DNA of 33,444 nt. It comes from a virus. The first letter of the stretch is position 1, and each line of letters opens with the position of its first letter. Shown piece by piece: positions 1-28,726 of the stretch. The stretch spans positions 1 through 33,444 of IMG/VR virus record IMGVR_UViG_3300025894_000859. One strand, given 5' to 3'. Both the position numbers and the translations under genes were made by a program. The notes below the pieces were generated by a model. The model was not told where the DNA came from. It did not search any database and worked only from the letters and a program-made list of their open reading frames with translations.

Positions 1-867
1 TACGCCTGATTTAGTTGCGTCATCTGGATGGCTATCTACTGCGTCGTCAATTCCATCGTTGTCAGCATCTACGCCTGATTTAGTTGCGTCATTTGGATGG
101 CTATCTACTGCGTCGTCAATTCCGTCGTTGTCAGCATCTACGCCTGATTTAGTGTTATCATGTAAGTGACTATCTGCGTTATTACCTATTCCGTCTCCGT
201 CTGTATCAACACTTTCAGTGCTGTCATTTGGAAATGCATCCGAGTTGTCGCCTACTCCGTCTCCGTCTGTATCGGCACTTTCAGTATTATCATTTGGAAA
301 TGCATCGTCTAAATCGTCAACACCGTCGCCATCTGAGTCTCCAGATCTAGTGCCGTCATTTGGAAATGCATCCAGTAAATCGTCAACACCGTCTCCATCT
401 GAGTCTCCAGCTTTAGTGCTGTCATTTGGAAATGCATCCAGTAAATCGTCAACACCGTCTCCATCTGAGTCTCCAGCTTTAGTATTGTCATTTGGAAATG
501 CATCGTCTAAATCGTCAACACCGTCGACATCTGAGTCTCCAGCTTTAGTATTATCATTTGGAAATGCATCGTCTAAATCGTCAACACCGTCGCCATCCGA
601 GTCTCCAGCTTTAGTATTATCATTTGGAAATGCATCGTCTAAATCGTCAACACCGTCTCCATCTGAGTCTCCAGCGTTAGTGCTGTCATTTGGAAATGCA
701 TCCGAGTTGTCGCCTACTCCGTCTCCATCGCTATCAACTGTTTCAGTTGGATCCGCTGGAAATGGATCTAAGTTGTCGCCTACTCCGTCTCCATCGGTAT
801 CTGCCGACTCTGAGCTATCGAGTGGAAATATATCGAGAGAGTCTTCAACTCCATCGCCGTCGGCGTC
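1..867 (-). repeat. Tandem 66/69-bp repeats coding TSP3-like units
   Basis: Thirteen consecutive units fill this stretch: ten of 66 bases (positions 867 down to 208) and three of 69 bases (207 down to 1). The central units are nearly identical at DNA level and code for DSDGDGVDDLDDAFP followed by NDNTKAG. The outer ones diverge (DTDGDGVGDNSDAFP and DADNDGIDDAVDSHP). One unit has a Gly-to-Val change (DSDVDG) at about 520-530. The pattern is typical of unequal crossing over, and the array continues beyond the left edge. Confidence 0.9.
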
Positions 868-1920
868 TGGAAATCCACCTACGCTGCTATCGGAGTCGTC
901 AGTATCAAAGTCACTGTAAGTTCCGTCCCCGTCTGCGTCGGTGTGAACTTCAACGTTATTTACGGTATCAGTTGGGGGTATAACCATAATATCAACTTGG
1001 GCTGGATCGATTCCATTTTTATCAGCAGTACCGACATCCCCATAAGGGTCTATGGCTGCGGCACCAGCAACAATACCAGTCGACACTCCATCAATTTCCC
1101 ACTCCCCGTTAGAATTTATAACAATTGTAGGGGCTACACCCGGAGTTCCTTGAGGGCCTTGAGCTCCGTCAACTCCTGGGGCTCCGTCATTTCCTTTTAA
1201 ACCTTGAGCTCCGTCAACTCCGTCAACTCCTGAAATTCCTTGAGGGCCTTGAGGGCCCGTAAAGCCTTGTGCTCCAGTTGCTCCGTCAACTCCTGGGGCT
1301 CCAGCAGCTCCAGTAGCTCCATCAGCTCCGTCAGTTCCGGCTAAACCTGGAGTTCCTTGAGGGCCTTGTGCTCCGTCAATTCCGTCCGTTCCATTAGTGC
1401 CAGCAATGCCAGCGGGGCCAGCTACGCCAGTATCTCCTTTAGGGCCCTGTAGTCCGATAGGTCCTTGTAATCCGTCAGCTCCTGGAGCTCCTTGTGGTCC
1501 GCCATTTCCTTGCAGTCCAGGTGCTCCGTCAGCTCCATCAGCTCCAGCGGGGCCATTTGCTCCCTGGGCTCCATTTTGTCCTGGAAGTCCGTTCGCTCCA
1601 GCGGCTCCAGTTGCTCCCTGGACTCCTTGAGGGCCTTGAGCTCCTTGTCCTCCAGCGGCGCCATTATTTCCAGCGACGCCTTGAGCTCCTTGCGGGCCTG
1701 GGGCTCCGTCCGCTCCGTCCGCTCCATCCGCTCCGTCGGCTCCATTATTACCAGGAGCGCCTCGAGCTCCTGTAGCTCCTCTTGGGCCAACACCTTGCAC
1801 TTGGAGATTTAACTCATCCAGGTCGGTGAGAGGGGCGAGATCAGTTAAAACACTGTCTCCTTCTATACGCACATAGGTGCTACCTTTTGTCTTGGAGTTT
1901 CTTTTGCGGTTATTTGCCAT
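1..1920 (-). CDS. Collagen-like / thrombospondin-type-3 repeat fibre protein (3' end outside window)
   Basis: An open frame of 640 codons runs from the ATG at 1920 to the left edge with no stop, so the C-terminus is missing. Residues 1-44 are a basic head plus a short hydrophilic segment. Residues 45-262 are uninterrupted Gly-X-Y triplets (about 72), rich in GADG and GPQG, as in phage collagen-like fibres. A short domain follows with the motif NGEWEIDGVSTG, common after phage collagen stretches. From residue 352 there are 13 acidic units of 22-23 residues (DxDGDGVxDxxDAFPND), which are thrombospondin type 3-like calcium-binding repeats. The likely role is a trimeric, calcium-stiffened fibre or capsid decoration for adhesion; that role is inferred. 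It is the gene after the portal, 81 bases downstream. No Shine-Dalgarno is present, only TATAAGG directly against the ATG. A bacterial-type adhesin acquired by the phage is an alternative reading of the repeat part. Confidence 0.85.
   Translation of the reverse strand, partial: MANNRKRNSKTKGSTYVRIEGDSVLTDLAPLTDLDELNLQVQGVGPRGATGARGAPGNNGADGADGADGADGAPGPQGAQGVAGNNGAAGGQGAQGPQGVQGATGAAGANGLPGQNGAQGANGPAGADGADGAPGLQGNGGPQGAPGADGLQGPIGLQGPKGDTGVAGPAGIAGTNGTDGIDGAQGPQGTPGLAGTDGADGATGAAGAPGVDGATGAQGFTGPQGPQGISGVDGVDGAQGLKGNDGAPGVDGAQGPQGTPGVAPTIVINSNGEWEIDGVSTGIVAGAAAIDPYGDVGTADKNGIDPAQVDIMVIPPTDTVNNVEVHTDADGDGTYSDFDTDDSDSSVGGFPDADGDGVEDSLDIFPLDSSESADTDGDGVGDNLDPFPADPTETVDSDGDGVGDNSDAFPNDSTNAGDSDGDGVDDLDDAFPNDNTKAGDSDGDGVDDLDDAFPNDNTKAGDSDVDGVDDLDDAFPNDNTKAGDSDGDGVDDLLDAFPNDSTKAGDSDGDGVDDLLDAFPNDGTRSGDSDGDGVDDLDDAFPNDNTESADTDGDGVGDNSDAFPNDSTESVDTDGDGIGNNADSHLHDNTKSGVDADNDGIDDAVDSHPNDATKSGVDADNDGIDDAVDSHPDDATKSGV
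1135..1788 (-). repeat. Collagen-like Gly-X-Y coding repeat
   Basis: About 72 in-register Gly-X-Y triplets occur without interruption inside the fibre gene. X and Y are dominated by A, D, P, Q, N and V (GAD, GPQ, GAP, GVD). There is no proline-hydroxylation context, so stability would have to come from charged and glutamine-rich triplets, as in other phage and bacterial collagen-like proteins. Confidence 0.9.
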
Positions 1921-2001: not shown

Positions 2002-4020
2002 CTACTGGTACTGATTCATGCCTCGAGGATTACTATTCCCCATGCCTTCAACAGCTCCCATAACACCATCTCTAGGCTGAGGACTCTCCCCCGCATTTGC
2101 GGCGTTGTCCCCATGCATCTTAGCAATCTCAGCTTCAACTTTCGGATCAGGTGGTGCCTCTTGAGGAAGCAGTTCATCGGTATTCTCAAAGCCCATTGCA
2201 TCAAGAATTCGCTTAAGCATAGGACGCATAAAGGGTCTCATCTCTGGCGGTGATTGGAAGAATCTCTCCTGAGTTTGCAGTGCAAGGTTTGCTTTCTCTA
2301 TCGCCCTTTGACCTTGGTCTTGCGACAAAACAACTCGAACATTGATCCCCACCTCTTGTATTTGTTCAGGGGTCATTACTGCAAAAGCTCGGATATCACC
2401 TTCCATGTATTCAAACACTTCCTCTTCATCCATAGTCGCCATTGCAACTTGAACGAGCTTTGTTAAGTGCTCTTCAAATCCTCGGACGATTCTACGCATC
2501 CAACGGCGACCAATCTTCGAGGCTTCAGCGAGAGTAGCTTCTACTCCAGTCGCGGTATTAGCGGGTGCAAGTGCTTGATAATCTCCCTGGGCCATGTTCG
2601 AAACACCTAGCCACAGTTGAACAATACCGAAGACAAAATCAATCAGTTCCTGGGTTTTAATGTCTACATTTGGGATAGCTGAAAACTGTAGGAAGTCGTC
2701 GATCTGGTACTGATCTTTTAGCTCAAATATTTTACCCGCGTGTAACTCTACATCTTCGGGCTCATCTTCAACGGCCTGAGGATTGACACCTATGACTGGG
2801 TTTGCAGCCAGCTCATTCCGATAGCTTTGAGAGTTAAACTGTTTATCGATGTACTCTTGAAAACTCTTAATTCTTTCAGGTAGGCTGTAACCGCACCATT
2901 TATTTCTCTCCTTACCAATTGATACAACCGAATACGGAGGCTTATTGTCTGGAGTTAGTTTTGCTACATACTCGTAGTACAAAGGCTTCTTTGATTCGGG
3001 ATCAATGAATATGCAGAATTCCTGTGGAGTGCCTGTACCTAATACATCTCTTTTAACCCAGCACTCAAGAATTTGAACACTAGGATTCTCTTCATTATCG
3101 AAGTCTAGGTTTTCAGTTCTATTCTCGTTCTTTTCAATTGGGCTTCTTGGATTGGCATCTTTGTTAATTAGATTTCTGTAGTCATCAAATATCATCCACT
3201 CGCGCTCAAGAAATATCTTTTCAACCCATCTGATATCTTTGTCATATAGCTCTACTACAAAGTCTGATTTCTCAACTGACTCTTCGCTAGAAGAACAAAG
3301 AAAACGATCTGAGTCTACGACTTCCGACCTTGGACCTTTGTACCTGACCTGTTCAGTTGGGATCCCGTCTGGAAGCGGTTGGAATTCGTGTACGCCTGGA
3401 ATCATCTGGACTGTGGGATCGTCCGAAAGCCTAAGCTCTTCTTCTCCAGTCATTGGGTTTAGCTCAGGTATAAACTGGGCTTCTCCTTCAATGATTGGGC
3501 CTTTACCAGGGATCTCTTCAAACTCCTGAGTCAGCAGATTAAACATGCCATTTCTTTCGTGGTCATACCAGACAGATACATCTTCCTCGTACACAGACTT
3601 AAGAACTAAAGCTCTTTGTATAAACACGTGGAGATAGGACTCTTCTAGTCTCTCTCGGGTGTTGCCCTGATCCTCAATCTTCCAGTTGAAGTACTTATCA
3701 AAAGATTCTGCCATTTCAGAGTCTTGAGCTCCCTGGGCTTCAAACTTAAAGTAAGGAGAAGTACCTGTAATCTCATCCTCGGCCCTGGCCATGAAATGAT
3801 CTACTACCAAGGAGGTCAGAGGAATAGACAGATTAGAGTTTGAGAATATACCGTCGTATCCAGCTCGGTCGTCTCTCTCGTTGTGATACATTTTCCAAGA
3901 AAGCTTGTCAGATTCGATCCGCTCTCGGTTATCTTCTCGGAGCTGTTCGACTCGGTCTAGTGCGTACTTAACGAGCTTGTCTTCTTGTTCTTTAGTAAGG
4001 CGTAAGTTGGTTTTTTTCAT
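2002..4020 (-). CDS. Portal protein
   Basis: A 672-aa protein that would form the dodecameric ring at the packaging vertex through which the terminase drives DNA in and DNA leaves at infection. It has the length and layout of large podovirus-type portals: an N-terminal helix rich in K/E/R, a segment near residues 60-110 (SIPLTSLVVDHFMARAEDEI), an aromatic-rich wing, a conserved-looking region at about 375-420 (RNKWCGYSLPERIKSFQEYID), then a stem region around residues 490-550 with Ala/Thr-rich NTATGVEATLAEASKIGRRW. The acidic/Pro-rich C-terminal tail ends in a disordered Gly/Asn stretch. Its ATG overlaps the stop of the giant gene (TAATG), so translation is probably coupled. The start at 4020 is the only one compatible with that overlap. 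The assignment rests on fold-like features and position, not on an alignment. Confidence 0.8.
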   Translation of the reverse strand: MKKTNLRLTKEQEDKLVKYALDRVEQLREDNRERIESDKLSWKMYHNERDDRAGYDGIFSNSNLSIPLTSLVVDHFMARAEDEITGTSPYFKFEAQGAQDSEMAESFDKYFNWKIEDQGNTRERLEESYLHVFIQRALVLKSVYEEDVSVWYDHERNGMFNLLTQEFEEIPGKGPIIEGEAQFIPELNPMTGEEELRLSDDPTVQMIPGVHEFQPLPDGIPTEQVRYKGPRSEVVDSDRFLCSSSEESVEKSDFVVELYDKDIRWVEKIFLEREWMIFDDYRNLINKDANPRSPIEKNENRTENLDFDNEENPSVQILECWVKRDVLGTGTPQEFCIFIDPESKKPLYYEYVAKLTPDNKPPYSVVSIGKERNKWCGYSLPERIKSFQEYIDKQFNSQSYRNELAANPVIGVNPQAVEDEPEDVELHAGKIFELKDQYQIDDFLQFSAIPNVDIKTQELIDFVFGIVQLWLGVSNMAQGDYQALAPANTATGVEATLAEASKIGRRWMRRIVRGFEEHLTKLVQVAMATMDEEEVFEYMEGDIRAFAVMTPEQIQEVGINVRVVLSQDQGQRAIEKANLALQTQERFFQSPPEMRPFMRPMLKRILDAMGFENTDELLPQEAPPDPKVEAEIAKMHGDNAANAGESPQPRDGVMGAVEGMGNSNPRGMNQYQ

Positions 4021-7000
4021 TATACGGAAAGACCGGCTTTTTGTGCGCGGTTAATAACTCTGGTCATGAACTCTAACTGTTTTGTCTGATAGTTCGCAAT
4101 CAGTTGTGCTTTTTCCGAATCTGACTTATTAGAAGCGTTTATTTTAGTCTCCATGTCTTTGGCCTTAAGTCTATACGCTGCGTATTTTTTTACGTCGTCT
4201 TTAAACTGTAAGATTTTGCTGTTAAACTTTATTGTCTGAGATCTTTTGTCTGCTGGGGCTTTGTCTACAACTGCCTGTGCGGAATTAACTGCGTCCTCAA
4301 GGTTGTACATTTTACGTTTTGTAGACCCCCCATAAGTATCATTCCTTAAAAATCTTTGTAGTACTGGTATATTTTTAAAGTCAACATCTACACCTGGAGT
4401 GAATGCCGCATGTGCCGTAACAATCGACTTTTCAACAACATCAAATGGGCCTCCTAATATTCCGTAGATTATGTGCCTTATTTGACCTCCGCTCCAGTCC
4501 CACTTCCAGTCTTCGTTCTCCTTGAACTCTAGAGGATTCATTCCGAGCATTCCGCGAATAGATCCGACAGATACGTCTGATCCTCCTCCAGCTTCATTAA
4601 ACTTCCTAGAGAGCTCGGTCCACGCAAGCGGGGTACCCTTAGGGTCTAGCATGTGTGCTGGAACTGGCTCTCCCCATGGAGCTTGAGCATAACGAATGTC
4701 ACCACCCATGAAGTTCTTATTCTGTTTAAGCTCGATAAAAGGAGTTGCGACTGATGGGGTGAGCAGACTGATGATATCTCCACTACCAAAGGGATTAACA
4801 ATATCAGACATGTCACCCGACAGGTTGCTCATCGACTCCATAACACCGTGACCTCCTCTGAGGAAAGGTGTGTAAAAAGAAGTCATATCAGCGAGAGTTT
4901 GACCCGCTCCCCAAATGCCTGCGGGTAGACCGAGAGGTAGATCAAGTCGGATGTGATGACCTTTATCTTCAATACCAGCCGCTTCAAGAAGCCATCCTGG
5001 CATTGGGATAATCATTTTACGATGGCGTGCAAAAGATGATACCTGGTCATACATTGGCTCAGTCTCTTCGTCTTCATCATCGTCCAGCAGTCTAGCCATT
5101 AATGCAAAGCCGTAAGATACACCCATGATTCCTCCTACCAGTTGGTACCTCTCTTTTTTATTTCTGTGCATGAAACTTCGATATGCTCTATCGATACCGT
5201 TAGTCGCTGCACGGAAGAACATGTACATCGAATTCATAGCGTTCGATTTATTGCCACCTTGATTAAAGTCGACCGTCAAGTTCCTAGAGATTAAAGCAGC
5301 TTCTTGAGTAGACCTACCGTCTTTAATCGCCGCCCAGAATGAGGAAACCCTGAGTGAGTTTTCTGCTACTGAGTTTAGCGCATCCAAATATTGGTTAGTT
5401 GTGTTCCAGATTCTAACCGCAGAGTTTTGTTTCTTAGAGTCGGACAATTTAGTCATATCCTGAACTAACTTGGGTACGCTTTTAGCATTAAAGTAACCGA
5501 CAAGGCCTCCGCTAAATTTTGTAAACATGTACATCTTAACAGGATCATTCTCAGCTAAGATCTTTTGAGCAGCACCTTCGTGTTTAAATTCATCCATATT
5601 TACTGGGCTCTTCTTATCTTTCTTGAGAGATACCTCAGCTTTAAAAATAGCTTTACCAAACTTACTGATGTTACCATAGCTAAGCGTGTTCTTAATAAGA
5701 GACTTTTTATCGTCTTCGCCTAGATTCAACAAAGTAGTTCCTAAATCCTTAAGAAAGTTGGGGACTACGAAGTTAGGGTTCTTTGAGGTAAACATCTGAG
5801 ACATAAAACGAGTACCCTCGTTTAAAAGCTTAAGTAGCTCGGGGAGTGCCTCATATCTCATATTTTTAAGCGCTGCGGCCATCATTTTGCCGTGCGCATT
5901 TTCTTGAAATGATATGTACATGGGTAGCCCTCCCTCACGGAAAACGAATGTGTGAGGGTCGTTCTTAAAATCATTATTGATGGTTTTTGTTACCATTTTT
6001 AACCTATCTGAATTTGTGCCGTCTTCATCGATTGGAGACACATCGGCCATCACGTACTCAGTTTTAGGTACTGCTTGAATATGAGTTTTGAAGAACTTGT
6101 CGTACTCCTTATTCATGTTGGCTCTAAGCTCCTTGTTCTGGTGGAGTTTTTCTAGATCCATACCTTGGAATTCATCCGGCAAGCCTTCTTCTGCACCTTT
6201 GGCGACTCTGCGCATAAAATTGTGAAGATCCCCAAAGGATCGGGATACAGTGTTTTTGCTGGCTCTAATTGCACCCTCTGTGTGTTGCTGTTCTGCTACA
6301 CCTAGTACAATCTCGGCATCAGGGCCTTTTATGCCAGTCTCCCCCTTATCATTCTTCTCTGTTCCGAAGCGACCAAATGCACCGTGTGTAAGGAATCTAA
6401 CTTTAGGTTGGTCGAAGCCTTTACCAGCAGACTTTGTTGCTTGGCCTAAAATTTCCCATGCTTGTTCTCCGTCAACCATGCTTTGAAATTCTCCTTCAAA
6501 ACCTTGCATTGGCGCATACGAGTATTTGGAAGGTTTACCGTCAGCGTCTTTAAATGTATAATTCGAGCCATTTAAGCCCCAGTCAAAATAAGAGGCGGCC
6601 TGAGTCATACGAGAATGTTCCTCTTCGGCAATCAGTCCATTGTCTACTCGGTTATCTAAATCAGCTTTCTGCTGTTCGTAAAACAACTGAAGAGGGCTAT
6701 TTGCATGATCTAGGAAAGCTTTAATGCTGTTCTCTGAACTCGAACTTTCTAAATCTTTGACAATTGCCCTAGCTTGTTCATCCGAAATTCCTGAAGGAGC
6801 TTCATTGTCTAATCTCTTGTTTAATTCTTCTAACCTTTCCGCTCTCTCGTTAAGATCCTTAATTGTGTGGAGATCTGCAATTGCGTCTTGAGTTTGTTTG
6901 CGATGATGAGCATTCCTACTTGGAGCCATGCGAGCCAGTAAGTACATACCAACATCTTTAATGTCGGTAGCAGTATCTCGCATAGCCTCCATAATTGGGT

Positions 7001-10000
7001 GGTGATATTTTAACTGAGCTTCTTCAAGCTTAGTGTGACCTATACCTAGGTAGGTGTGGATCTTTCCCCATGTATTGAGGGCGTCGTAAAGCTTACCTCC
7101 CTTTTCCATGTCGTTACCCATAAGGTTTTGCACATCATAGAATAGGTTTTTAACAGGACGAAACTTGTCAATATAATCGACCGTCATCTTGTCCTTAAAG
7201 CGTCCTGGATTAGTGATAGTACTCTTGTAGCCAGCTTTTGTGTGCTCGCTAAGCTCCCTCCAATTATCTTTATTGGAGAGCGTCTCCCACAACTTACGCA
7301 CACCGCTCACCTTGTTTTGGTTAGCAAAGCTAGAGCCGAGGGCGTTTACTTGTCGCACATTTAATCCTGTGAAGTCAGGATTAGCACCATTTGGCAGTCT
7401 AGAGGTAGAGTTATTGATTAGGCCTTGTGCCCTAATTACACCTTCAAGTACAGTGTCCCTAGGGTTTAAACCTAAGAATTTTGCCATGGCAAGCACGATA
7501 ACATCAAAGAAGTTTTCTACCGTCGGAATACTTGAACCTTTGAAAAGATTGCCGTATTTCTTTTTTTGTTCAGGAGTAAGAGTAATTTTACTTAATATCC
7601 GTTGCACGTTTGCGTTGGATAGTCCTTCCGTCAATAACTCAACTGGACCCATGAGATAATAACCGAAATCTATTTGCCCGTCGTTATAGTGTTGAACTAA
7701 ATCCGAGTAAAGAGAGATAAGGTTGTCAGCTGCCTCTACTCTCTCCTTTTCTCTTTTTGTTGTCGCCTTATTTCTCTCAAATGGGATTAACGTATCTCTG
7801 AATTCTTCAACCTTTTCTAGACCTATCTGCACATTTATAGATTTTTCATAAGCTTGTTGGAGTGTAACCTTGGTTCTTTCCGCAGGTGGTCTGTGGCTTT
7901 CCCAAGTGTGATGGAGTTGTGAAAGCCATTTCAATTCCACACCCTTTTTATCGGCGCGTTTTTCAGCTGCCGCATTAGCCATACCCAGAAACTCATTACC
8001 TATAGCGTGCACGGCTTCGTGCAAAAATGTTTTTATAAACTGCCCGGTACTCGGGCCTAAATACCTTCCATGAATGTCATAGTTGATAAATTCTTTAGAC
8101 ATCGAAATGAACCCTGTGTCCTCCTTATTTCTTATTTTTTTCAACTCTTCTGGGTCAGCGTTTAAGTCCTCTTTAGTATCAGAAAACGGATAATATCGAC
8201 CGGCAGCTCCTCCAGTATCATCAAGCATTACCACAGTCTGAGCAACAACAGGGTCTCTTTGAGCTTCGCTTCGTAAAGCGAATGTTAACTCCTTGTAATA
8301 TTCCAACTCTTCACCAGGCCCAATGCTATTAGCCTGTATACGTCTCATGGATACACCTCCACCAAGATTCACTATCTCTTCCGGATCCTGTCTTTCTAAT
8401 ATAAGTATATCGTGATAAAGATGCGTGAGAGCTTTTGTTAGTTTTGCATTTGGGCCACCACTCCCCGTCGTGGCCATATGCCTAAAGGTATTGATCAAAT
8501 TCTTTTCTGCGGGCAGCTTAAAGCTAGAGCCTAAATGTTCTGGAGCTGACCAGTCTTCTGAGGTCTCTGTTATCTTTTCGACTGGAGTGTTTCTCTTCGT
8601 AATGTCTCGGCCAACATTTCTGATGTTCTTAATCCACTTTAACATTGAGGTGTTTTCAGGCTTGTCGAAAGTTTGGCGAATGTACTTATAAAAAGCAGCT
8701 GGAGCTGCGGCATCACTATTACCGAGATCGTCCCACCAGTCTTGCAAAGCCTTAACCTGGAAACCTGATACCGACTCAAACATATTTCCGAGTTCGGGAG
8801 GGTTAGGCACATTGATTTTCTTAAACACTTCGCTGAGCGCACCCTGCTTGCTGTTGACTAGGCTAGACATTGCAGCGGCAATCACCATATTGTGATCTTC
8901 TACACCCTCACGTTTCATTAGGTTCAAAAACTGTTTTATGCGTAAGGACTTCTTGCCAGTCTCAGGCACAATCTCTTCCGCAATTTCACGTGTCGCTAAG
9001 TCTAACGCTTTCGACTTCTCGCGAGTTGAACTGTTTAATTTGCTGTCAGTAGAGGGTTCATTTCCTTCGCCATCCTGAACTGTTTTTGTGTCTTTACCGA
9101 AGTCCTCTTCTCCTAGCTCGAAACCGTCTGGAGCCTCTTCATTTACATCTTCTTTAGGCTTATTTGTTTTTGGGACGGTGTCTCCCATACGGACAACATC
9201 GATAAGACCAGGGTCACGAGTTACAACAGCTTGCTTCTTATCCTTATCCTCAATCTGGTCGTATATGTCTAAGCGTCTAGCATTTAGAATTGCCGAAAAT
9301 AGAGGGTCTAAAGCCTGACGGAAGTTTTGACCCCACTTAGCTTTATCAGCTTTTTCGTGTTGATCGTTCCAAATATCGCTATCTTCAAACCAGGCAGTAG
9401 AGTAAGCCTTACCCTTTAGCTCTTCAAGTAACTCTGGGAATTTTGTTTTCCAGAAAGCATCCTTAACAGGGTGAGTAAAGTTAGAGTTAGCCTTAATTGA
9501 TGCTACAAAATTTTTGTCATTCCGGAAACGCAGTCCAAGCAGTTCTCGCATTAAGTCTTCGCTGGTATCAGTATCAGCTTTTACATCAGCCTCTCGGGCT
9601 ATACTTTGAGCTTGTGCTCCTTCTAGCTCAGACGAAGTAAATTGATCAACCCAAGCATCTCCATCGGCCTCCACCTTAGCTTTATTTTTATAAGCCTGAT
9701 AAGCCGCTTCAACGGTATAGAACTCCTTATCGTTATATACTATGGGATTTGCTAGAGGTTGGAAATTAGAGAGATAAGCATTCTCACCTTTTGCGTAATT
9801 GATTGGAGTCGCTTGTCCATATTGTTTCTTCGACTTCCGACTTTCGGCTTTCGGCTTTTCTTCTTTTTTAACGGGCACTTTGCCTTTGAAAATCGCATCA
9901 AGAACCTGTTGTATTTTCTCCTGTTCCTTTACGGTGGTCCCGGTCGTGAAAATGTTGAGGTTGTATTGATCTGTATACTCAACGTATCTACCCATCGAGT

Positions 10001-13000
10001 CTTTAACTTGCTTCTGTATATCTCTAAAGTTTAGATCCTCAGCTAGATTTACTTCAATCAAATCTAAATCTGGATCGGTACGAGCTAGTTCCGCGACGTC
10101 TTGACCTCTCTTACTGCCTTCCTTTCGGGAATGGAATACGATAACACCCCTAGAGCTAGTCAAGTTTGTTAGGTCAATGTCCTGGTTGCTTACTACTTTA
10201 GCGGGAACTTTAATAGTTCCACCTTTAACTTCTCTGGTTGTTTCCTCTGTTGTTACCGTACCTACTTCAGACTGAAGACGACCAATAAAACGCTCATCAC
10301 CTTCATAGGCTTCAAGGTTTTCTTTAAACCACTTCTTAATAAACTCGGACTGACCGGCATCATCTAGAACTACTCTGTCTGGTGGGTAGGCTATAGAGTC
10401 TTCGTTATCGACTACAGCTCCGGCTTCGACCTCTGGCTCTTGACTTTTGAGTAGGTCTAAGGACTCAAGGAGTTGACCATAGGTTACTTCTTCTGCATCG
10501 GGTCTATCGGTTGGTACAACTGCATTTACATCTATCTTTAGATCCTTGTATAGCTGCTTAACTAAAGGTTGTAGGACTCGTTGTATTATGTACGGTGAAA
10601 GCTTTTGCCCAGGTCTTTCCGCTGATACTCCCTCTCCTCCGCTGTCTGATTCTCTAGTGTCGGCTGTAGGGAACAGGTTAAATGAGGCCATTCCACCTTT
10701 CCAAATTTGTTTAAGTAGGCTGACCGCTGAGTAGTGACCATCGCTGTCCGCTCGCATGAAGTCACGACCCTCTCCGTCTAGCTTGTCCGCATAAGCTGAA
10801 ATAGCTTGGTCGTATATACTAGGTCTATTGTAGTACTCCTGTAGTACACCAGTCTCTGCCTCTTGCTCATTAGTGGGGACTTGAACAGCTCCCATTCTGT
10901 GGCTGAGCTCTTTATTGTCCGCATCTACCCAAACATCTCCACTGAATTTTGCATTAACATTAACTGATTTACCGTCTGTATCAGTACCCTTGAATTTAAC
11001 TGTATCTCCTTCAAAGGCTGTAGACTTTAAAAATGTTTCGTTTAGTTGCTCGCGTTGTATGTACACTCGGTTCCACTCAGCAAACTTACCGCCTTTGCGG
11101 ATCCGACTGGGCACTTCAAATGTTTTACCGTACTGATCTACTTTTACACCAGGGACACGCTTGTCTTCGTCATCAACAAGGTTGAACATAGTACCAAAAG
11201 CTTTTTGTGCCTGCTTTATATACAGGTTTAGTAAGCTTACTTGTTTATCTGCGTCGGCAAACGTGAATTCTCCATGCACGCCTTCCATTGCTTCAACTAC
11301 ATCGTTGGGGTTCTGTAGGGCCTCAGCATCTGCTATAAACTCGTACCCTTCAGTTCTGAATTCTGGGAATACAAAAATCTCATCGAACTTCGTCTCTACG
11401 GGCTTTACGCGAACACGGTACTGGTTAGACCAGCTTATTTTTGTGTCGCCTTTGATTTGATGTGAGAAAGTGGGCTTTTGCTCTACAAACTGCTCTTGGA
11501 GGTTACTTAAAATTGCTTCATTTGTAGTGGTGTCTGCTCCCTCTTCTACGTCAGCTCTCTCTAGTTTTGCGTACTCGTCAAATATTGATTGTCTTGCGGC
11601 TGCGGCACTTTTACGAATTACTTCCTCTTCCTGTGTGATCTCAGCGTTTAGATCTTTGATCTCCTGAGTGACATCGTTCTGATCCTCGGAGTTCCGCTTT
11701 TTGTATGCGTCGGTTCTCTTCTTGTTAAGCTCCCCTAATTTTTTACTAGTGCGAGGTATTTCGGGAAGCTTATTCTTACTTTTCCAACTTGCATACGCTT
11801 TTTTGTCGAACTCGGCAGAACCGCTTTCGAGCTTAAATCTTCTATTCTGTAAGCGATCAATAAATTTGTTTTCGGATTCAGAAGCACCAATTGTAGCGAG
11901 AGTGTCCCGATACTTTGTGCTTAAGCCTGAAGTCCACAATCCGTCTCCTGTTATATCATCTTCCCAAACTTTCAGCACTGCGGCTAGAGCGTGAGACTTC
12001 ATGTATTTAAACTCGTATTCCGATAAAGCACCGCTCCAAAGACTTCCACCAATAATACCTTCAGGGGTGACCTCAATAGGTAACTCGGTCTGCCCTCCTT
12101 GACTGATTAAACCGTCGCTTATCTTTTCTTCGCGATTTACATAGTTGCCATTTTTATCTTTTACGTTGAGCCACTTTCTGTAGGACTGACCTTTAGGATG
12201 ACTCGCAACATATCTCGCTTGAAGAACTCTTTGATTTTCTCGGATCCGAGCGAAATGGTTAAACCCTTCATACGCTTTCTTTTCCTTTGTTAAACCTTCA
12301 ACATCTTTTACCCACGCTTCAAATGCCATTGGGGTTCTCTCTTTGGCGTGTTCCGCATCCTCATACTTTTTGTAGAAGTTCTTAAGTCGGCCCACGATGT
12401 TCTTTCGCATTTGCTGAGCTTTTTCGCTGGTGTCCTCGATTACTTCAGAATTAAAATCGGGTTCTAGATAAGTGCTGCGCTCAATGCCGACTTCATCGGG
12501 ACTGCTCATTTCCATGTTGAGGAGGACGCCTAAATTTCTCTTGTACCTTTCGATCCTGTCTAGTCGGCTTTTTTCGCTTTCGCCTGGAATTTTAGTAGTC
12601 TCTGCAAGTTTGATTGCTTCCGCAAAATAGGTAGATTTCTGGTACATTAACCAAAGCATCTTACCTTGTTTTGAATTCTCCCAAGATGAGCCTGTCCAGT
12701 TTGCTGCGTTTACAAGGTCGTATAGAAATGCTTCTTGAGGAGTTCTTTGATCTGCAAGCTCGGCCATTCTTTGTCGGCGAACTGGTAGCCCGTCTCTTTC
12801 GAAATCTGTATCTAGCGACTTCTCATTTAGCTGAAATATTTGGTGGGATAGGATCTGCAACAGGTTTGTTCCCTGGTCAGAAGTATAGCTCTCTATAGTG
12901 TCCCGATTGAGATTAGATTTTACCGATTTACCTTTAGCGGGGGAGTGTCTAGATGCAACGGCTGCGGATAGAGCTAGTGCGTATTGGCGAGCAGTCAGCC

Positions 13001-16000
13001 CACCGTATAGTGAAGTCGCTCGGTCAGGGTTCTTTTGTTTGGCTAGGTCAAAGCCTAAGTAAAAACCCTTCAGCGACTCTTGAGGCTTTAGCACTATGTA
13101 TTCTTTACCGTCCTTATCTTTAGAATAATATTTGCCGTCTTTCTCGATGTAGTACCTCAGATTATCTGAGGTCTTAGCCATGTCTTCCATAGTTACCCTG
13201 CGGTAGAAATCTTCTTGCCCTTGGGTTTCTTTGATATAGGCCGTGCCACCTTTAATGCCGTTAACTACAGTATTCTTCCATATGATAGTATAGTCTTCTG
13301 GAGCGTATAGCATCTCCGCTTCTTCCAGTTTTTGGATCTGTTCAGTTAGAGAGGCTAACCTCGCAGCCTTACCTTCTTTCCCGAGAATAGAGAGTAAAGC
13401 TTTTGGCTTACGCATTATTTGGGAGAGCTTTTGGGCGACTTCCTCTGGCTTTGGGTCTCTGCCTAGTTGGTCTTTAAGAGTGTCAAAAATACCGCCTTTA
13501 ACGTTTATGGTATCATTCCACAGTCTGTAGACAGAGTCTATAGACATACTGTCGTACTTCGTCTTTGTGTAAGTCTTTCCTTGCTTATCTTTCTTCTGTT
13601 CGGGTTTAGGCGCTTCAATAAGCTTCTTGAGATTTTTGTTAAACTCACTGCGTAAGTCGAAAGGTGTTTGGTCGTCTTGCAGTAGCTGGGCCTCTGTGCC
13701 TTGAGCGTAACCCTTGTCGATATGCTTAAAGACATCTTTTGGGGTCATGGTCTTTCCGTCTGGGCCGGAAGACATAACTTCTAAAAATGCAGTTATGAAA
13801 TTATAATTAAAACCATTTTCTACAAAATAGGAAGCCTGAGCATTTCTAAAAGTTTGGTTTCTGGAAAGCTTTGCGTAATTTAAATAGGAGTCTTGGGCGG
13901 TTAAATCTTTTGCGCTAATCATCGCTTTTGCTTGAGATTCAATCGCGCTGATCACCGCAGCCTTAATCGCTTTCTTTGTATCGGGTTTTATGTTGTCAGT
14001 TTCTTTCGCAAGCTTCTTTTCGCTCTTCTTCTCTCGTCTTTTCGATAGAACAACAAAATCTTTAGCCTTAGTGTTATAGGCTATCTGGTTACCCTTATAT
14101 TTCTTTATAAAGTTGTTGTTATTAGCAACCTTGGTCAGTAGACCCTTTACTAACGCCCTGTTTGATTTTGCCTCTTCAGGAGTAGAATTTGCTGCATCGT
14201 CTTTCTCATACGCATCTAGCATTTTTTCCATGCCCGTTATGTATGAAACTCCCTTCTCTGCCTTCTTACCTTCTTTACTAATCTGCTTAGTAAACTCTTC
14301 AGCACCAGGGTTCAGCGTGTGCACTCTTATAACATTCTTACCCTGCTCTTGTTTCTTTTGTTTTTTCTTATCGGGATAGGCTTTTCTTAACTGTCCCAAG
14401 CTTTTTTCAATTGATTGAGCTTCTTTAATAGCTTCTTGCTTTCGGGCCTGAATGTTTTCGGTGACCGATTTTAGTTCGTCTTTTCCTAAGTAGTCAAACT
14501 CCGCAATATCATTTACACCTGGTAGCTTCATGAGCATATTCGCGATTAACTGCGAACCCCACTGGCTCGAGCCACCTTTACTCATTTCAAGTATTTTATC
14601 AAAACCAGTAAGGTCAGAGATAATTGTTATGACTGAAACTTTCGGTACATACTTATCCCAAGTCTTAGCTTTATCGTCTTGAGGCAGATCTTTATAGGCA
14701 ATGCCGTCTTCTTTCATCAGCTCCTCAATTCTTTTATTCCGAGCAGCTTTAACTTTTTTAGCTAGATCTTTTGGGTTAGTCAGTAACGACTCAACCTCTC
14801 TTAAGGCATTAACTATTTTAGTAGAATCTTTAAGGTCGGACTCAGTTTGGGCTTTAACATAAGTATCGGCTTCCTCCTGGTCTTTAAATTCTTTTACTAC
14901 CTTGGAACCGACTTTCTGAAGAGATCCAGGGCTTCTTTTTGTTACTGTGACTTTCCCGTCTTTTTGCGCTTTAGTTGCATAGACATTCTGAGCAGCTTTA
15001 GATTCAATCTGATTTAACTCGGAAATCCATTGTTCAATCGGGCTTTTAGATAGCTGTCCTTGAACTTCGGCTTCTACCTCAGCATCAAATGCCTCAGTTG
15101 CGTCGCGGTCTCCTCGGGCTCTATCTATACCAACTTGCGGGTCTTGTGGTGCAAAAGTTGACCGACGGCCTTCTTTCTCCCTTAGTTTAATCCTGGAGCT
15201 CTGCTCACTGTCAGGTGCTTTTTTAGGCTCAGCTTTCTTCTTGGCCGTAACGGCTTCTCTGATCTTTCCCGCTTCTTCTTTATACTGTTTTGCCGCTGTA
15301 ACTTTCTCTTCAGCTGTTGCGAAAGCAGTAGTTTCTTTAGTGTAAAATTTTCTGCCGAGAATTGCTTCAACTGATTCTATAAGCTCCTTGTTTTCTTGGA
15401 GACCAGCTTCTCTTATTGCTTGAGACAAGAAGTTTAAACCTTCCTGTTCGCTCATGCCCTCAAAACCTTTCGGTAGAGCGGGGCTTCGAACTCCAGCTCT
15501 TGTAAAACTGTGAGGCAGATCTTCACCCATACGAGTACCGTTTGGTCCCCATCCTAAGGCGCTTAAAATTCTTCCGTCAATATTGACCGCGTCTTCTCCA
15601 GCATTCTCAACTGAACCCATCCAACCTTCCATTGCGGGTCTAATAAATTCTTTTAAGAAACTCTCTAAAGGTTTTACGATGCTCCTGTCTGCCTTGTTTC
15701 CCGCAAGTACTCTTGCGTATTGCAGTGAAAACCACTCTTCCGCTTGTACTTCTAGTGGAACAGTCTGATAGTACTTTAACACCTCAGCCTGCTTAGCCTT
15801 ATCCTTAATCTGAGTGTACTTTATATTAGGCACTTTAAGGACATACTCGGCGAGAGAATCTAGCTGAACTTTCTCACCCAGGTTTCTGTAGGTTTCGTAA
15901 AACTCTGCATTATCTTTGTAGATCTGTCTGCGAGCAAAGTGTCCCGATTCATGCATGAAAGCCCTCATGGGATTCTCTTGCATGAGCTTCTTATTAAAAG

Positions 16001-18629
16001 AGAGGGTGAACGCTCCGCTTTCTGGATCGTGCTCAAAAAAGCCTTCGCCAGTTACATCTTGTGGTGTTCTCTCAGCCATCACCAAACGCATGTTCTTGAA
16101 GTCAGCGGGGTTCATGCCTTGTAACTGCATGATTGTGTGCTGGAGCCATTTACCTTCTTCGGAATCAAAGTTAATATTTGAGGCATCCATTACATGAGCA
16201 GCCATGCTGTCTGAATTATCAAAAGTGTGCCAGGTATTGGTCATACCCGCTCTAGTCACAGTTCCTGTAGTACCAACGGGCTCACCGTTAATCTCATACG
16301 GTTTTGGCTCAGTGTAAGTCGGTGTTGCCATTGAGAAGTCAAAGTTGTCTGGCTTCTTCACTATTTCTCTGACCGATCCGTAAAGACCAAAGGGGCTAAC
16401 TAGATCTAAAACACCTTCTGCGGCAATTGCGTCGTGATCGAATCCTTCGCCAGGATCCCTGGAAAGTAGTTGACCTAAAAACTCTCCACCCATTCCAGAA
16501 GCCACTTGAACTCCTTCTTCTGCACCAACACCCGTCATCCTCTGAGCTTTTGTAAAAATCGGTACATCAAGACCAGCTTGAGTCCAATCTGTTCTACCTT
16601 TTTGCTTAGCGAACTTACTGGCGTTTGTAAGCTTCCCGGACTTTATTCCTAAATAGTTTGCACTTTGACGAACTCGTCCAGCCATCATTGCGCCAAACAT
16701 ATCACCTAGAGCAACTCCGCCTGCTTTTAAAGTGGCTTTCTTGCGAAGCTTATTTAATACCGTTTCATCTTGGAAAGCAGCCATTACTATTTCGGGGTCA
16801 TTTGTATCAATGCCCATTTCTGCAAGGTTGCCCATTACTTCACCTGTGTACTCGAGTGCGAAAGAAGCAAGACCCGCATTTAGTCGAGCGCCTACTCCTG
16901 TGGCCGCAAGTATTCCAAACTTACCTTTCATCTTACCTACAACTCCGACTGCTGCGGATGCGGGTAGTGCAACCTTGGCTGTATTTAAGTAAGTCGGTAA
17001 GTATGCCGTCATGACTTCTACAAGCATTTCGGGTAGCGCTTCAGGCTCGTCAAAAATCATCTTTCCGATCGCTGAAAGAACATTGCTGGACTTCATATTC
17101 TGAAGTCTTTGCAACGATTTACTTCCTGGCATGTCTTCGATGTCTTGGGATATATCAATAAGTTCTTTAACTGTAGATTCCCCTATTCTGTTTAAAGCTA
17201 TCTCATCACTGAGCATTGCTTGGTCGGCCATTTTAAGACCACGGTTCCAAGCATTTGACATGTTTCTTTTGACACCTTCCCACCACCCGACTTCGTCGTC
17301 GCGAGATGACATCTGTTCGTATATTCTAGAGTTAAGGCCGTGGTCACCCGCCACATTCATCATGCCGTAGTAGTTGTTCTTAGCATCCTCGAGCTTATCT
17401 TTTAGTGCGGGTCGGGCTTTACCGTTACCAGCGCTTTTGATTAACTCCATCTGAGCTTGGCGATATAGGTCTTTTGCCTGGTAAACTCCTTTTAAAATCT
17501 TTGCTGTCTCTAAACCTTCTTCGCCACCTAGCTCTGCGATAGCCTCGTCAATGGGAGTCCCTTTAAAGTCAGTAATACCTGATGCTTTTAGTGCTGCTGC
17601 ATCTAGTAGGTCTGCATCTTTTCTGCTGAGGCCACGGGGGAGTGTTCCCGTGTGCGGGGTCATGTAACCCTTAGTTCTAAGGTTTCTACTTTTATCTAAA
17701 ACTTCTCTTTCTCTTAGTATCGCATCTACATTACCACCCATCGCTTTAGCGAGGCGTTGGTTTTGAGCAGACTTAATTGGGTCTTTTCCTGTATATTTGT
17801 CAGGGGTGGACTTTATAGTGGCTCGTGGATCTACTCGATCGAGATTAATGACTTCTCCGCTGTACTTATCTACTACTGGTTTCTCCCAGTTCATCGAATT
17901 CAGCTTTGCATTAACCTGTTTTGCGCTAGAGGATCCCTTACCTTTTGACTTAAGTTGCGCGTCCATTGCGATGCGCTGTTCAAGTGGGATGCTAACCATG
18001 CTGTCCAACAATGCTGTCTTCCTGGAATCAACATCGTCGCGCATTGCTTTTCTTTTATCGCGTTCCTCTTTTAGTTTCAGGAACTTAGCACGCATACCAT
18101 TAGCCCCATTCCAGGAGCCAAAGCCTTTTAAAGATTCAAGTGCTCCGGTTTTGCGATCGGACGGCCCCATAAAACCGTCTTCTTCAAGAGAGTCTTTCTC
18201 GAGCTGCTTATAGTGGGCATCGATCTGATTGAAATACTCGTCACCACTCTTGCTATCCTTTATTTCTCCGTATAAACCTTGCTGATCGTAGAAAGGTTTT
18301 AGCTCGTTTGAGAGGTAGTCATCATACCGACCGTCCCACATTGAGGTTAGCTGGCCTAATTTTGAAGACTCACTGGTTAATATGCTGTGCTGAGACTTTG
18401 CTTGATCGTAGGTGTCGAGTTCGTCGAAAGGAGAAAAGTTGTCAACACGTGGGTCGTCGGCTGGATTTTCGTAGCGCTTAAGGTTGGTAGCCTTCTGTGT
18501 AACTGGAGCTGGCCCTCCAAAGGGCTGATAAGCCTTTGGGGAAGGCTTGCTTATAAATTTACTTAGGCCGGAATCTTTTTTCTTATCGTAGTCCCCAGCT
18601 CCTAAGTCCAAATCACTAAGTAAGGACAT
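4020..18629 (-). CDS. Giant polyvalent, probably virion-ejected protein (4,869 aa)
   Basis: One unbroken frame of 14.6 kb. Residues 1-530 are hydrophilic and helical. About 535-790 is an Ala/Gly-rich amphipathic and hydrophobic stretch (KVALPASAAVGVVGK) like membrane-active segments of ejected proteins. A first zincin motif HESGH is at 893-897 with a downstream acidic helix (AEEWFSLQ, 963-970). About 1000-2800 is charged, largely unassigned helical sequence. About 2825-2915 weakly resembles the C-terminal half of a SLOG/YpsA-type nucleotide-binding domain. About 2945-3080 is NADAR-like (ENAYLSNFQP, TVEAAYQAYK, then FW). A second zincin HEAVH is at 3537-3541 with ELLTEGLSN at 3664-3672. From 4281 (TSKNPNFVVPNFLKD) to about 4650 it matches the large polyvalent protein C-terminal domain (LPD38 type). 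Known polyvalent proteins enter the host with phage DNA and act on host defences or metabolism; this role is inferred here. No T7-type RNA polymerase motifs were seen, which argues against an N4-like virion RNA polymerase. Confidence 0.85.
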   Translation of the reverse strand: MSLLSDLDLGAGDYDKKKDSGLSKFISKPSPKAYQPFGGPAPVTQKATNLKRYENPADDPRVDNFSPFDELDTYDQAKSQHSILTSESSKLGQLTSMWDGRYDDYLSNELKPFYDQQGLYGEIKDSKSGDEYFNQIDAHYKQLEKDSLEEDGFMGPSDRKTGALESLKGFGSWNGANGMRAKFLKLKEERDKRKAMRDDVDSRKTALLDSMVSIPLEQRIAMDAQLKSKGKGSSSAKQVNAKLNSMNWEKPVVDKYSGEVINLDRVDPRATIKSTPDKYTGKDPIKSAQNQRLAKAMGGNVDAILREREVLDKSRNLRTKGYMTPHTGTLPRGLSRKDADLLDAAALKASGITDFKGTPIDEAIAELGGEEGLETAKILKGVYQAKDLYRQAQMELIKSAGNGKARPALKDKLEDAKNNYYGMMNVAGDHGLNSRIYEQMSSRDDEVGWWEGVKRNMSNAWNRGLKMADQAMLSDEIALNRIGESTVKELIDISQDIEDMPGSKSLQRLQNMKSSNVLSAIGKMIFDEPEALPEMLVEVMTAYLPTYLNTAKVALPASAAVGVVGKMKGKFGILAATGVGARLNAGLASFALEYTGEVMGNLAEMGIDTNDPEIVMAAFQDETVLNKLRKKATLKAGGVALGDMFGAMMAGRVRQSANYLGIKSGKLTNASKFAKQKGRTDWTQAGLDVPIFTKAQRMTGVGAEEGVQVASGMGGEFLGQLLSRDPGEGFDHDAIAAEGVLDLVSPFGLYGSVREIVKKPDNFDFSMATPTYTEPKPYEINGEPVGTTGTVTRAGMTNTWHTFDNSDSMAAHVMDASNINFDSEEGKWLQHTIMQLQGMNPADFKNMRLVMAERTPQDVTGEGFFEHDPESGAFTLSFNKKLMQENPMRAFMHESGHFARRQIYKDNAEFYETYRNLGEKVQLDSLAEYVLKVPNIKYTQIKDKAKQAEVLKYYQTVPLEVQAEEWFSLQYARVLAGNKADRSIVKPLESFLKEFIRPAMEGWMGSVENAGEDAVNIDGRILSALGWGPNGTRMGEDLPHSFTRAGVRSPALPKGFEGMSEQEGLNFLSQAIREAGLQENKELIESVEAILGRKFYTKETTAFATAEEKVTAAKQYKEEAGKIREAVTAKKKAEPKKAPDSEQSSRIKLREKEGRRSTFAPQDPQVGIDRARGDRDATEAFDAEVEAEVQGQLSKSPIEQWISELNQIESKAAQNVYATKAQKDGKVTVTKRSPGSLQKVGSKVVKEFKDQEEADTYVKAQTESDLKDSTKIVNALREVESLLTNPKDLAKKVKAARNKRIEELMKEDGIAYKDLPQDDKAKTWDKYVPKVSVITIISDLTGFDKILEMSKGGSSQWGSQLIANMLMKLPGVNDIAEFDYLGKDELKSVTENIQARKQEAIKEAQSIEKSLGQLRKAYPDKKKQKKQEQGKNVIRVHTLNPGAEEFTKQISKEGKKAEKGVSYITGMEKMLDAYEKDDAANSTPEEAKSNRALVKGLLTKVANNNNFIKKYKGNQIAYNTKAKDFVVLSKRREKKSEKKLAKETDNIKPDTKKAIKAAVISAIESQAKAMISAKDLTAQDSYLNYAKLSRNQTFRNAQASYFVENGFNYNFITAFLEVMSSGPDGKTMTPKDVFKHIDKGYAQGTEAQLLQDDQTPFDLRSEFNKNLKKLIEAPKPEQKKDKQGKTYTKTKYDSMSIDSVYRLWNDTINVKGGIFDTLKDQLGRDPKPEEVAQKLSQIMRKPKALLSILGKEGKAARLASLTEQIQKLEEAEMLYAPEDYTIIWKNTVVNGIKGGTAYIKETQGQEDFYRRVTMEDMAKTSDNLRYYIEKDGKYYSKDKDGKEYIVLKPQESLKGFYLGFDLAKQKNPDRATSLYGGLTARQYALALSAAVASRHSPAKGKSVKSNLNRDTIESYTSDQGTNLLQILSHQIFQLNEKSLDTDFERDGLPVRRQRMAELADQRTPQEAFLYDLVNAANWTGSSWENSKQGKMLWLMYQKSTYFAEAIKLAETTKIPGESEKSRLDRIERYKRNLGVLLNMEMSSPDEVGIERSTYLEPDFNSEVIEDTSEKAQQMRKNIVGRLKNFYKKYEDAEHAKERTPMAFEAWVKDVEGLTKEKKAYEGFNHFARIRENQRVLQARYVASHPKGQSYRKWLNVKDKNGNYVNREEKISDGLISQGGQTELPIEVTPEGIIGGSLWSGALSEYEFKYMKSHALAAVLKVWEDDITGDGLWTSGLSTKYRDTLATIGASESENKFIDRLQNRRFKLESGSAEFDKKAYASWKSKNKLPEIPRTSKKLGELNKKRTDAYKKRNSEDQNDVTQEIKDLNAEITQEEEVIRKSAAAARQSIFDEYAKLERADVEEGADTTTNEAILSNLQEQFVEQKPTFSHQIKGDTKISWSNQYRVRVKPVETKFDEIFVFPEFRTEGYEFIADAEALQNPNDVVEAMEGVHGEFTFADADKQVSLLNLYIKQAQKAFGTMFNLVDDEDKRVPGVKVDQYGKTFEVPSRIRKGGKFAEWNRVYIQREQLNETFLKSTAFEGDTVKFKGTDTDGKSVNVNAKFSGDVWVDADNKELSHRMGAVQVPTNEQEAETGVLQEYYNRPSIYDQAISAYADKLDGEGRDFMRADSDGHYSAVSLLKQIWKGGMASFNLFPTADTRESDSGGEGVSAERPGQKLSPYIIQRVLQPLVKQLYKDLKIDVNAVVPTDRPDAEEVTYGQLLESLDLLKSQEPEVEAGAVVDNEDSIAYPPDRVVLDDAGQSEFIKKWFKENLEAYEGDERFIGRLQSEVGTVTTEETTREVKGGTIKVPAKVVSNQDIDLTNLTSSRGVIVFHSRKEGSKRGQDVAELARTDPDLDLIEVNLAEDLNFRDIQKQVKDSMGRYVEYTDQYNLNIFTTGTTVKEQEKIQQVLDAIFKGKVPVKKEEKPKAESRKSKKQYGQATPINYAKGENAYLSNFQPLANPIVYNDKEFYTVEAAYQAYKNKAKVEADGDAWVDQFTSSELEGAQAQSIAREADVKADTDTSEDLMRELLGLRFRNDKNFVASIKANSNFTHPVKDAFWKTKFPELLEELKGKAYSTAWFEDSDIWNDQHEKADKAKWGQNFRQALDPLFSAILNARRLDIYDQIEDKDKKQAVVTRDPGLIDVVRMGDTVPKTNKPKEDVNEEAPDGFELGEEDFGKDTKTVQDGEGNEPSTDSKLNSSTREKSKALDLATREIAEEIVPETGKKSLRIKQFLNLMKREGVEDHNMVIAAAMSSLVNSKQGALSEVFKKINVPNPPELGNMFESVSGFQVKALQDWWDDLGNSDAAAPAAFYKYIRQTFDKPENTSMLKWIKNIRNVGRDITKRNTPVEKITETSEDWSAPEHLGSSFKLPAEKNLINTFRHMATTGSGGPNAKLTKALTHLYHDILILERQDPEEIVNLGGGVSMRRIQANSIGPGEELEYYKELTFALRSEAQRDPVVAQTVVMLDDTGGAAGRYYPFSDTKEDLNADPEELKKIRNKEDTGFISMSKEFINYDIHGRYLGPSTGQFIKTFLHEAVHAIGNEFLGMANAAAEKRADKKGVELKWLSQLHHTWESHRPPAERTKVTLQQAYEKSINVQIGLEKVEEFRDTLIPFERNKATTKREKERVEAADNLISLYSDLVQHYNDGQIDFGYYLMGPVELLTEGLSNANVQRILSKITLTPEQKKKYGNLFKGSSIPTVENFFDVIVLAMAKFLGLNPRDTVLEGVIRAQGLINNSTSRLPNGANPDFTGLNVRQVNALGSSFANQNKVSGVRKLWETLSNKDNWRELSEHTKAGYKSTITNPGRFKDKMTVDYIDKFRPVKNLFYDVQNLMGNDMEKGGKLYDALNTWGKIHTYLGIGHTKLEEAQLKYHHPIMEAMRDTATDIKDVGMYLLARMAPSRNAHHRKQTQDAIADLHTIKDLNERAERLEELNKRLDNEAPSGISDEQARAIVKDLESSSSENSIKAFLDHANSPLQLFYEQQKADLDNRVDNGLIAEEEHSRMTQAASYFDWGLNGSNYTFKDADGKPSKYSYAPMQGFEGEFQSMVDGEQAWEILGQATKSAGKGFDQPKVRFLTHGAFGRFGTEKNDKGETGIKGPDAEIVLGVAEQQHTEGAIRASKNTVSRSFGDLHNFMRRVAKGAEEGLPDEFQGMDLEKLHQNKELRANMNKEYDKFFKTHIQAVPKTEYVMADVSPIDEDGTNSDRLKMVTKTINNDFKNDPHTFVFREGGLPMYISFQENAHGKMMAAALKNMRYEALPELLKLLNEGTRFMSQMFTSKNPNFVVPNFLKDLGTTLLNLGEDDKKSLIKNTLSYGNISKFGKAIFKAEVSLKKDKKSPVNMDEFKHEGAAQKILAENDPVKMYMFTKFSGGLVGYFNAKSVPKLVQDMTKLSDSKKQNSAVRIWNTTNQYLDALNSVAENSLRVSSFWAAIKDGRSTQEAALISRNLTVDFNQGGNKSNAMNSMYMFFRAATNGIDRAYRSFMHRNKKERYQLVGGIMGVSYGFALMARLLDDDEDEETEPMYDQVSSFARHRKMIIPMPGWLLEAAGIEDKGHHIRLDLPLGLPAGIWGAGQTLADMTSFYTPFLRGGHGVMESMSNLSGDMSDIVNPFGSGDIISLLTPSVATPFIELKQNKNFMGGDIRYAQAPWGEPVPAHMLDPKGTPLAWTELSRKFNEAGGGSDVSVGSIRGMLGMNPLEFKENEDWKWDWSGGQIRHIIYGILGGPFDVVEKSIVTAHAAFTPGVDVDFKNIPVLQRFLRNDTYGGSTKRKMYNLEDAVNSAQAVVDKAPADKRSQTIKFNSKILQFKDDVKKYAAYRLKAKDMETKINASNKSDSEKAQLIANYQTKQLEFMTRVINRAQKAGLSV

Positions 18630-28665: not shown

Positions 28666-28683
28666 ATGGTGTGTGTGTGTGTT
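28666..28683 (-). promoter_or_regulatory. CA-repeat leader before rIIA
   Basis: AACACACACACACACCAT lies directly before the ATG. It is the longest copy of a leader shared by five genes in this module and replaces a Shine-Dalgarno sequence. It decides the start of rIIA against the upstream in-frame ATG. Confidence 0.7.
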
Positions 28684-28726
28684 AATAAAGGGTGAGCAGT
28701 TATACGACATGCTCAGGTCGATGGGA

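What the first reader, a model, noticed from the sequence alone, without database searches (positions are those of the whole stretch)
1..1920. Fibre combining an unbroken collagen domain with calcium-binding TSP3-like repeats
Phage collagen-like stretches are known, and TSP3-like repeats are typical of bacterial surface adhesins. Both in one phage protein next to the portal is unusual. The nearly identical DNA units allow rapid length change and so variation in reach or host binding.
Basis: partly seen in the sequence, partly recalled or inferred. Interest (0 to 1): 0.6.

Follow-up and report, generated by a model that had tools for sequence, protein, structure and literature searches.

The report
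Marine phage fibre joining collagen, TSP3
This is the front part of a long virus fibre gene that joins a collagen rod to a chain of calcium-binding-type repeats; each part is known, but the combination is unusual and shows how ocean phages mix and match the arms they probably use to grip bacteria.

Summary
Window 1..1920 (-) is the 5' part of a fibre gene cut by the contig edge inside its own 69-bp repeats: a 44-aa N-terminus, 73 unbroken Gly-X-Y triplets, a linker, then 13 units of 22-23 aa of the DxDxDGxxD type. Two near-identical contigs complete it: about 1,501 aa, no cysteine, net charge about -221, with beta-type domains after the first array. The repeats are TSP3-like by profile (COMP 1.2e-9, bacterial OmpA 1.5e-9) and modelled fold, but score below the Pfam cut-off.

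Relatives show how it is built. The N-terminal anchor recurs directly behind the portal in three other phages on different stalks. The TSP3 array plus first beta domain (80% identical) recurs in a phage with unrelated capsid and tail genes, on another stalk. In otherwise 99.9% identical DNA, two contigs differ by exactly one in-frame 69-bp unit, so array length probably varies.

Best reading: a modular adhesion fibre with a virion anchor, a collagen rod of about 60 nm, a calcium-stiffened extension and C-terminal binding domains. Virion location, calcium binding and receptor are inferred. No other viral ORF examined combines the two repeats. New variant of a known kind; moderate interest.

The parts
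1..1920 (-). Fibre gene, 5' part (640 aa), cut by the contig edge; complete composite about 1,501 aa
   Evidence: ORF; continuation in L002 and L038
1789..1920 (-). N-terminal anchor, residues 1-44 (basic, KxKGxTxxRxxxxSxLxxL)
   Evidence: Similar to N-termini of genes directly behind the portal in L029, L170 (two genes) and L022; 0-1 of 5000 shuffles reach the scores for L029 and L170
1132..1788 (-). Collagen stalk, residues 45-263, 73 unbroken Gly-X-Y triplets
871..1131 (-). Linker after the collagen, residues 264-350 (APTIVINSNGEWEIDGVSTG and following), possible trimer cap
   Evidence: sequence; the cap role is inference
211..870 (-). TSP3-like units 1-10, 22 aa (66 bp) each
   Evidence: profile and fold match to TSP3
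1..210 (-). TSP3-like units 11-13, 23 aa (69 bp) each; the window ends inside this block
   Evidence: one extra unit in L038 relative to L002
2002..4020 (-). Portal protein (SU10 type), upstream neighbour of the fibre gene
   Evidence: PF23899, 117 bits; PHROG portal

Best explanation
The gene encodes a modular adhesion fibre of a marine, probably short-tailed phage. A small basic N-terminus fixes it to the virion, probably near the portal or neck; 73 Gly-X-Y triplets form a trimeric collagen rod of about 60 nm; the TSP3-like array, loaded with calcium in seawater, forms a stiff acidic extension; and C-terminal beta-type domains bind a surface structure, probably a glycan, on the host. Anchor, stalk and distal arm are exchanged between phages, and in-frame gain or loss of 66/69-bp units changes the length of the arm. 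Shown: the sequence anatomy, the shared anchor, the shared distal module, and a one-unit difference between contigs. Inferred: virion location, trimer, calcium loading, binding role.
For: Collagen 73 triplets. TSP3-like repeats by profile against solved structures, model pLDDT 93, Foldseek to 5wtl E 5e-8. The gene lies behind an SU10-type portal and, in L038/L167, before scaffold- and capsid-position genes. Anchor shared with post-portal genes of L029, L170 and L022 on other stalks. Array plus first beta domain shared with a fibre of an unrelated phage, L042. Relatives carry collagen proteins with carbohydrate-binding-type domains, Laminin_G_3 in L007 and CBM_5_12 in L017. One exact 69-bp unit differs between L002 and L038 with one other substitution.
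Against: No virion proteomics. The C-terminal domains have no family or structure match, so a binding role rests on analogy with relatives. Pfam TSP_3 is below its cut-off and TSP3_bac gives no match. The position between portal and scaffold, not among tail genes, leaves a head or neck location open. The full gene is a composite of two contigs.
Confidence: 0.62

Rival explanations
1. It is a head or neck decoration fibre (in the way of the whiskers or Hoc of T4) that binds polysaccharide, mucus or particles and so concentrates virions, and is not the receptor-binding fibre that decides host range.
For: The gene lies between portal and scaffold/capsid genes; the family slot holds many adhesin-like domains; Roseobacter phage CRP-7, a distant relative by terminase, goes from the portal straight to two small genes and the scaffold, so such a fibre is dispensable in the wider group.
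Against: In L042 the same array plus beta domain sits on a fibre stalk encoded among tail genes, which favours a tail location there.
Confidence: 0.25
2. The apparent variation in repeat number is an assembly artefact: the 69-bp units are collapsed or expanded in short-read contigs and the true number is fixed.
For: All contigs are metagenome assemblies; the window ends inside the 69-bp units, L038 begins inside the array, and the extra unit is an exact copy of its neighbour.
Against: L002 and L038 both run through the 69-bp block into unique sequence and otherwise differ at one position over about 1,100 bp.
Confidence: 0.35
3. The gene is a host-derived surface protein gene carried by the phage, expressed in the infected cell rather than built into the virion.
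For: TSP3 repeats occur with carbohydrate-binding and FN3 modules in secreted proteins of marine bacteria such as Saccharophagus degradans (PMC2386152).
Against: The gene starts with a short basic N-terminus that is shared with other post-portal phage genes and shows no evident signal peptide (by eye, not run); it lies in the virion gene block; the first beta domain was not found in bacterial genomes.
Confidence: 0.06

Closest known systems
Phage collagen-like fibre proteins (EPclA-type proteins of E. coli prophages; PHROG 'collagen like minor tail')
   Same: Collagen repeat between non-collagen end domains in a phage fibre-type protein (PMC3368898)
   Different: No PfN, PfC or Pf2 domain found; a TSP3-like arm and beta domains follow the collagen
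Bacterial TSP3 repeats (Capnocytophaga gingivalis OmpA, PDB 5wtl)
   Same: DxDxDG repeat, no cysteine, profile E 1.5e-9, Foldseek E 5e-8
   Different: Not in an outer-membrane protein; much longer array; follows collagen; low TM-scores (0.26-0.30)
TSP3-bearing fibre of the uncultured phage contig L042 (IMGVR_UViG_3300046368_001116)
   Same: TSP3-like array of the same kind followed by the same beta domain, 80-81% identical
   Different: Coiled-coil/beta-type stalk instead of collagen; different C-terminus; capsid and tail genes without similarity to this family
Anchored short collagen genes of relatives L029 and L170
   Same: Same N-terminal anchor, directly behind the portal, followed by collagen
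   Different: Only 24 and 13 triplets and about 18 further residues; no TSP3 repeats, no distal domains

Membership tests
Collagen-like proteins (PF01391) | Continuous Gly-X-Y repeat over the curated cut-off | tested here: met
   73 triplets; 115.8 bits against 27.2
Collagen-like proteins (PF01391) | Triple-helical trimer | not testable with these tools
   needs CD and mass measurement
TSP3 repeats | Tandem DxDxDGxxD calcium-loop motif | tested here: met
   23 strict motifs in the composite; 12 full units plus one at the edge in the window
TSP3 repeats | Score over the curated Pfam cut-off (PF02412 or PF18884) | tested here: not met
   PF02412 best 19.3 bits against 25; PF18884 no match
TSP3 repeats | Profile and fold similarity to solved TSP3 structures | tested here: met
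   3fby 1.2e-9, 5wtl 1.5e-9, 2rhp 9.6e-7; Foldseek 5wtl 5e-8, 1yo8 1.5e-3, with low TM-scores
TSP3 repeats | Calcium binding | not testable with these tools
   inferred from the motif
Animal thrombospondin TSP3 | Conserved disulphide-forming cysteines | tested here: not met
   0 Cys in 1,501 aa; hence the bacterial type, not the animal family
Phage virion fibre | Gene in the virion block, N-terminal module shared with other phage genes | tested here: met
Phage virion fibre | Presence in the virion | not testable with these tools
   metagenome contigs only
EPclA-type E. coli phage collagens | PfN/PfC phage fibre domains | tested here: not met
   no such Pfam hit at E <= 0.1 for the window part and E <= 1 for the L002 and L038 parts

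The most novel reading that the evidence does not exclude
The phage decorates its own collagen fibre: the glycosyltransferase-25-type gene (a family that also holds animal procollagen galactosyltransferases) and the sulfotransferase gene next to it, a few kb downstream in the same phage, modify the fibre. The three phages that have the KxKG-anchored collagen gene and a visible region (window phage, L029, L170) all carry this pair; five relatives with a visible region but without the anchor (L004, L007, L023, L028, L036) do not.
Probability: 0.08. Interest if true: 0.7.

Novelty: new variant of a known kind. Interest (0 to 1): 0.4.

Why it matters
It shows in natural sequence how an ocean phage lengthens and re-tips a fibre: a conserved virion anchor, an exchangeable collagen stalk, and a calcium-repeat arm that also occurs on another stalk in an unrelated phage. 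The in-frame 66/69-bp units make copy number a testable setting for reach.

Tried and rejected
Megablast, blastn and tblastn of the gene or its parts against annotated phages gave no match; BLAST's low-complexity filter may hide the repeats. L039, returned by the first protein search, is a chance low-complexity match to an unrelated phage. L113 looked like a second collagen-TSP3 ORF, but its run is a GSG/GGS linker, not collagen. Single-sequence structure prediction of the C-terminal 860 aa failed (pLDDT 34.5), so the distal domains stay unassigned. The first beta domain was not found in bacterial and archaeal genomes, nor was the exact VDDLxDAFPND repeat subtype, so no host could be named. 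No paper joining TSP3 and phage tail fibres was found in the open library. A DxDGD motif near the N-terminus of several relatives' first post-portal genes was considered as the common anchor, but the window protein does not align to it convincingly.

Full report
What is there. The window is a 33,444-bp virus record. On the minus strand, 1..1920 is one ORF that starts at 1920 and runs off the left edge. Residues 45-263 are 73 unbroken Gly-X-Y triplets, Pfam Collagen 115.8 bits; chance does not give this. From residue 351 there are ten 22-aa units and then 23-aa units with the motif DxDxDGxxD. The DNA of units 4-9 is 82-97% identical and that of units 12-13 is 97% identical; other pairs are mostly 47-77%, so 'nearly identical' applies to two blocks only.

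Completing the gene. L002 (4,674 bp) matches the window over 4,090 bp with one mismatch and continues past the edge; L038 (part of a 16.8-kb contig) overlaps the array and reaches the stop codon. The composite is 1,501 aa with no cysteine, a net charge of about -221 and 23 strict motifs. After the first array come a beta-type domain (D1), a second array, a further domain, a single unit, a pair of domains 49% identical to each other, one or two more units and a C-terminal domain. This is a composite of two contigs, not one sequenced molecule.

Repeat number. L002 and L038 differ over about 1,100 bp by one substitution and one exact 69-bp unit. Both unit lengths (66 and 69 bp) are multiples of three, so gain or loss keeps the frame: length would change, not on/off state. 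Short-read assembly can produce such a difference, so this is suggestive and not proof.

Are the repeats TSP3? A profile of 36 segments headed by the window's own units finds COMP (1.2e-9), Capnocytophaga OmpA 5wtl (1.5e-9) and thrombospondin-2 (about 1e-6) among solved structures. The model of six units has pLDDT 93 and no regular secondary structure, and matches 5wtl at 5e-8 by Foldseek, with low TM-scores. Pfam TSP_3 stays below its cut-off and TSP3_bac gives nothing. I therefore call them TSP3-like, nearest the bacterial type. Calcium binding is inferred from the motif.

Family context. The neighbouring portal is SU10-like. Among 36 portal relatives, most of them 73-89% identical, the genes between portal and scaffold differ strongly: collagen proteins without TSP3 in L007, L017, L020, L023 and L029, none in others. 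In Roseobacter phage CRP-7, a distant relative by terminase, the portal is followed by two small genes and the scaffold with no fibre gene between. In L007 a collagen protein carries a Laminin_G_3 domain and in L017 a CBM_5_12 domain, which is the main reason to expect a glycan-binding end here too.

Two-sided evidence for modularity. The 44-aa anchor recurs at the start of genes right behind the portal in L029 (24 triplets, 125 aa, nothing distal), L170 (13 triplets; and a second gene with a non-collagen stalk) and L022. Conversely, array plus D1 recurs in L042 at 80-81% identity on another stalk, in a phage whose capsid and tail genes show no similarity to this family in the loci held. The module has therefore moved between lineages.

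How unusual. Two DNA patterns for TSP3 repeats brought in viral loci of which, with all others held, 116 (some from one contig, the window's own phage left out) carry at least two TSP3-type motifs in one ORF; none of those ORFs also holds ten or more collagen triplets; six loci carry both in separate ORFs. Bacterial proteins were not surveyed for the combination.

Mechanism. Anchor at the portal or neck, collagen rod of about 63 nm (219 residues at 0.286 nm, established geometry), calcium-loaded acidic arm, binding domains at the far end. Shown: anatomy, shared anchor, shared distal module. Inferred: virion location, trimer, calcium loading, ligand. The chief rival is a head or neck decoration fibre.

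Open lead. The phage's contig encodes a glycosyltransferase (PHROG glucosyltransferase, 27 bits; its 60% homologue in L029 passes Pfam Glyco_transf_25) followed by a sulfotransferase (PF03567). Both occur in the three phages with the anchored collagen gene and a visible region, and not in five relatives lacking the anchor. Numbers are small, shared ancestry explains it equally well, and modification of the host surface or of other phage parts is the ordinary expectation; only two of 73 triplets carry lysine at Y, so the animal-type hydroxylysine route is unlikely.

Noticed in passing
L038:7302-8027 (+) and 8024-8587 (+): Glycosyltransferase-25-type gene followed by a sulfotransferase gene in the window phage's contig, also in L029 and L169/L170.
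   Followed up: partly
window 4020-18629 (-): A 4,869-aa ORF between the portal and an 898-aa gene, with only a Large polyvalent protein domain (LPD38) recognised near its C-terminus; probably an injected giant protein.
   Followed up: no
L049, L055, L056, L069, L073, L121 and others: Long TSP3-like arrays are frequent in viral contigs, some over 200 kb; L069 holds about 50 motifs in one ORF, and six loci carry a collagen ORF and a TSP3 ORF side by side.
   Followed up: partly
first genes behind the portal in L008, L010, L012, L020, L021, L023, L027: A basic N-terminus followed by a single DxDxDG-type loop recurs in otherwise different proteins of this slot; possibly another anchor type.
   Followed up: partly
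window 26569-28710 (-); 30372-31160 (-); 31366-32136 (-): rIIA-like protein, a GP88-family protein and a DUF932 protein in the other half of the window.
   Followed up: no
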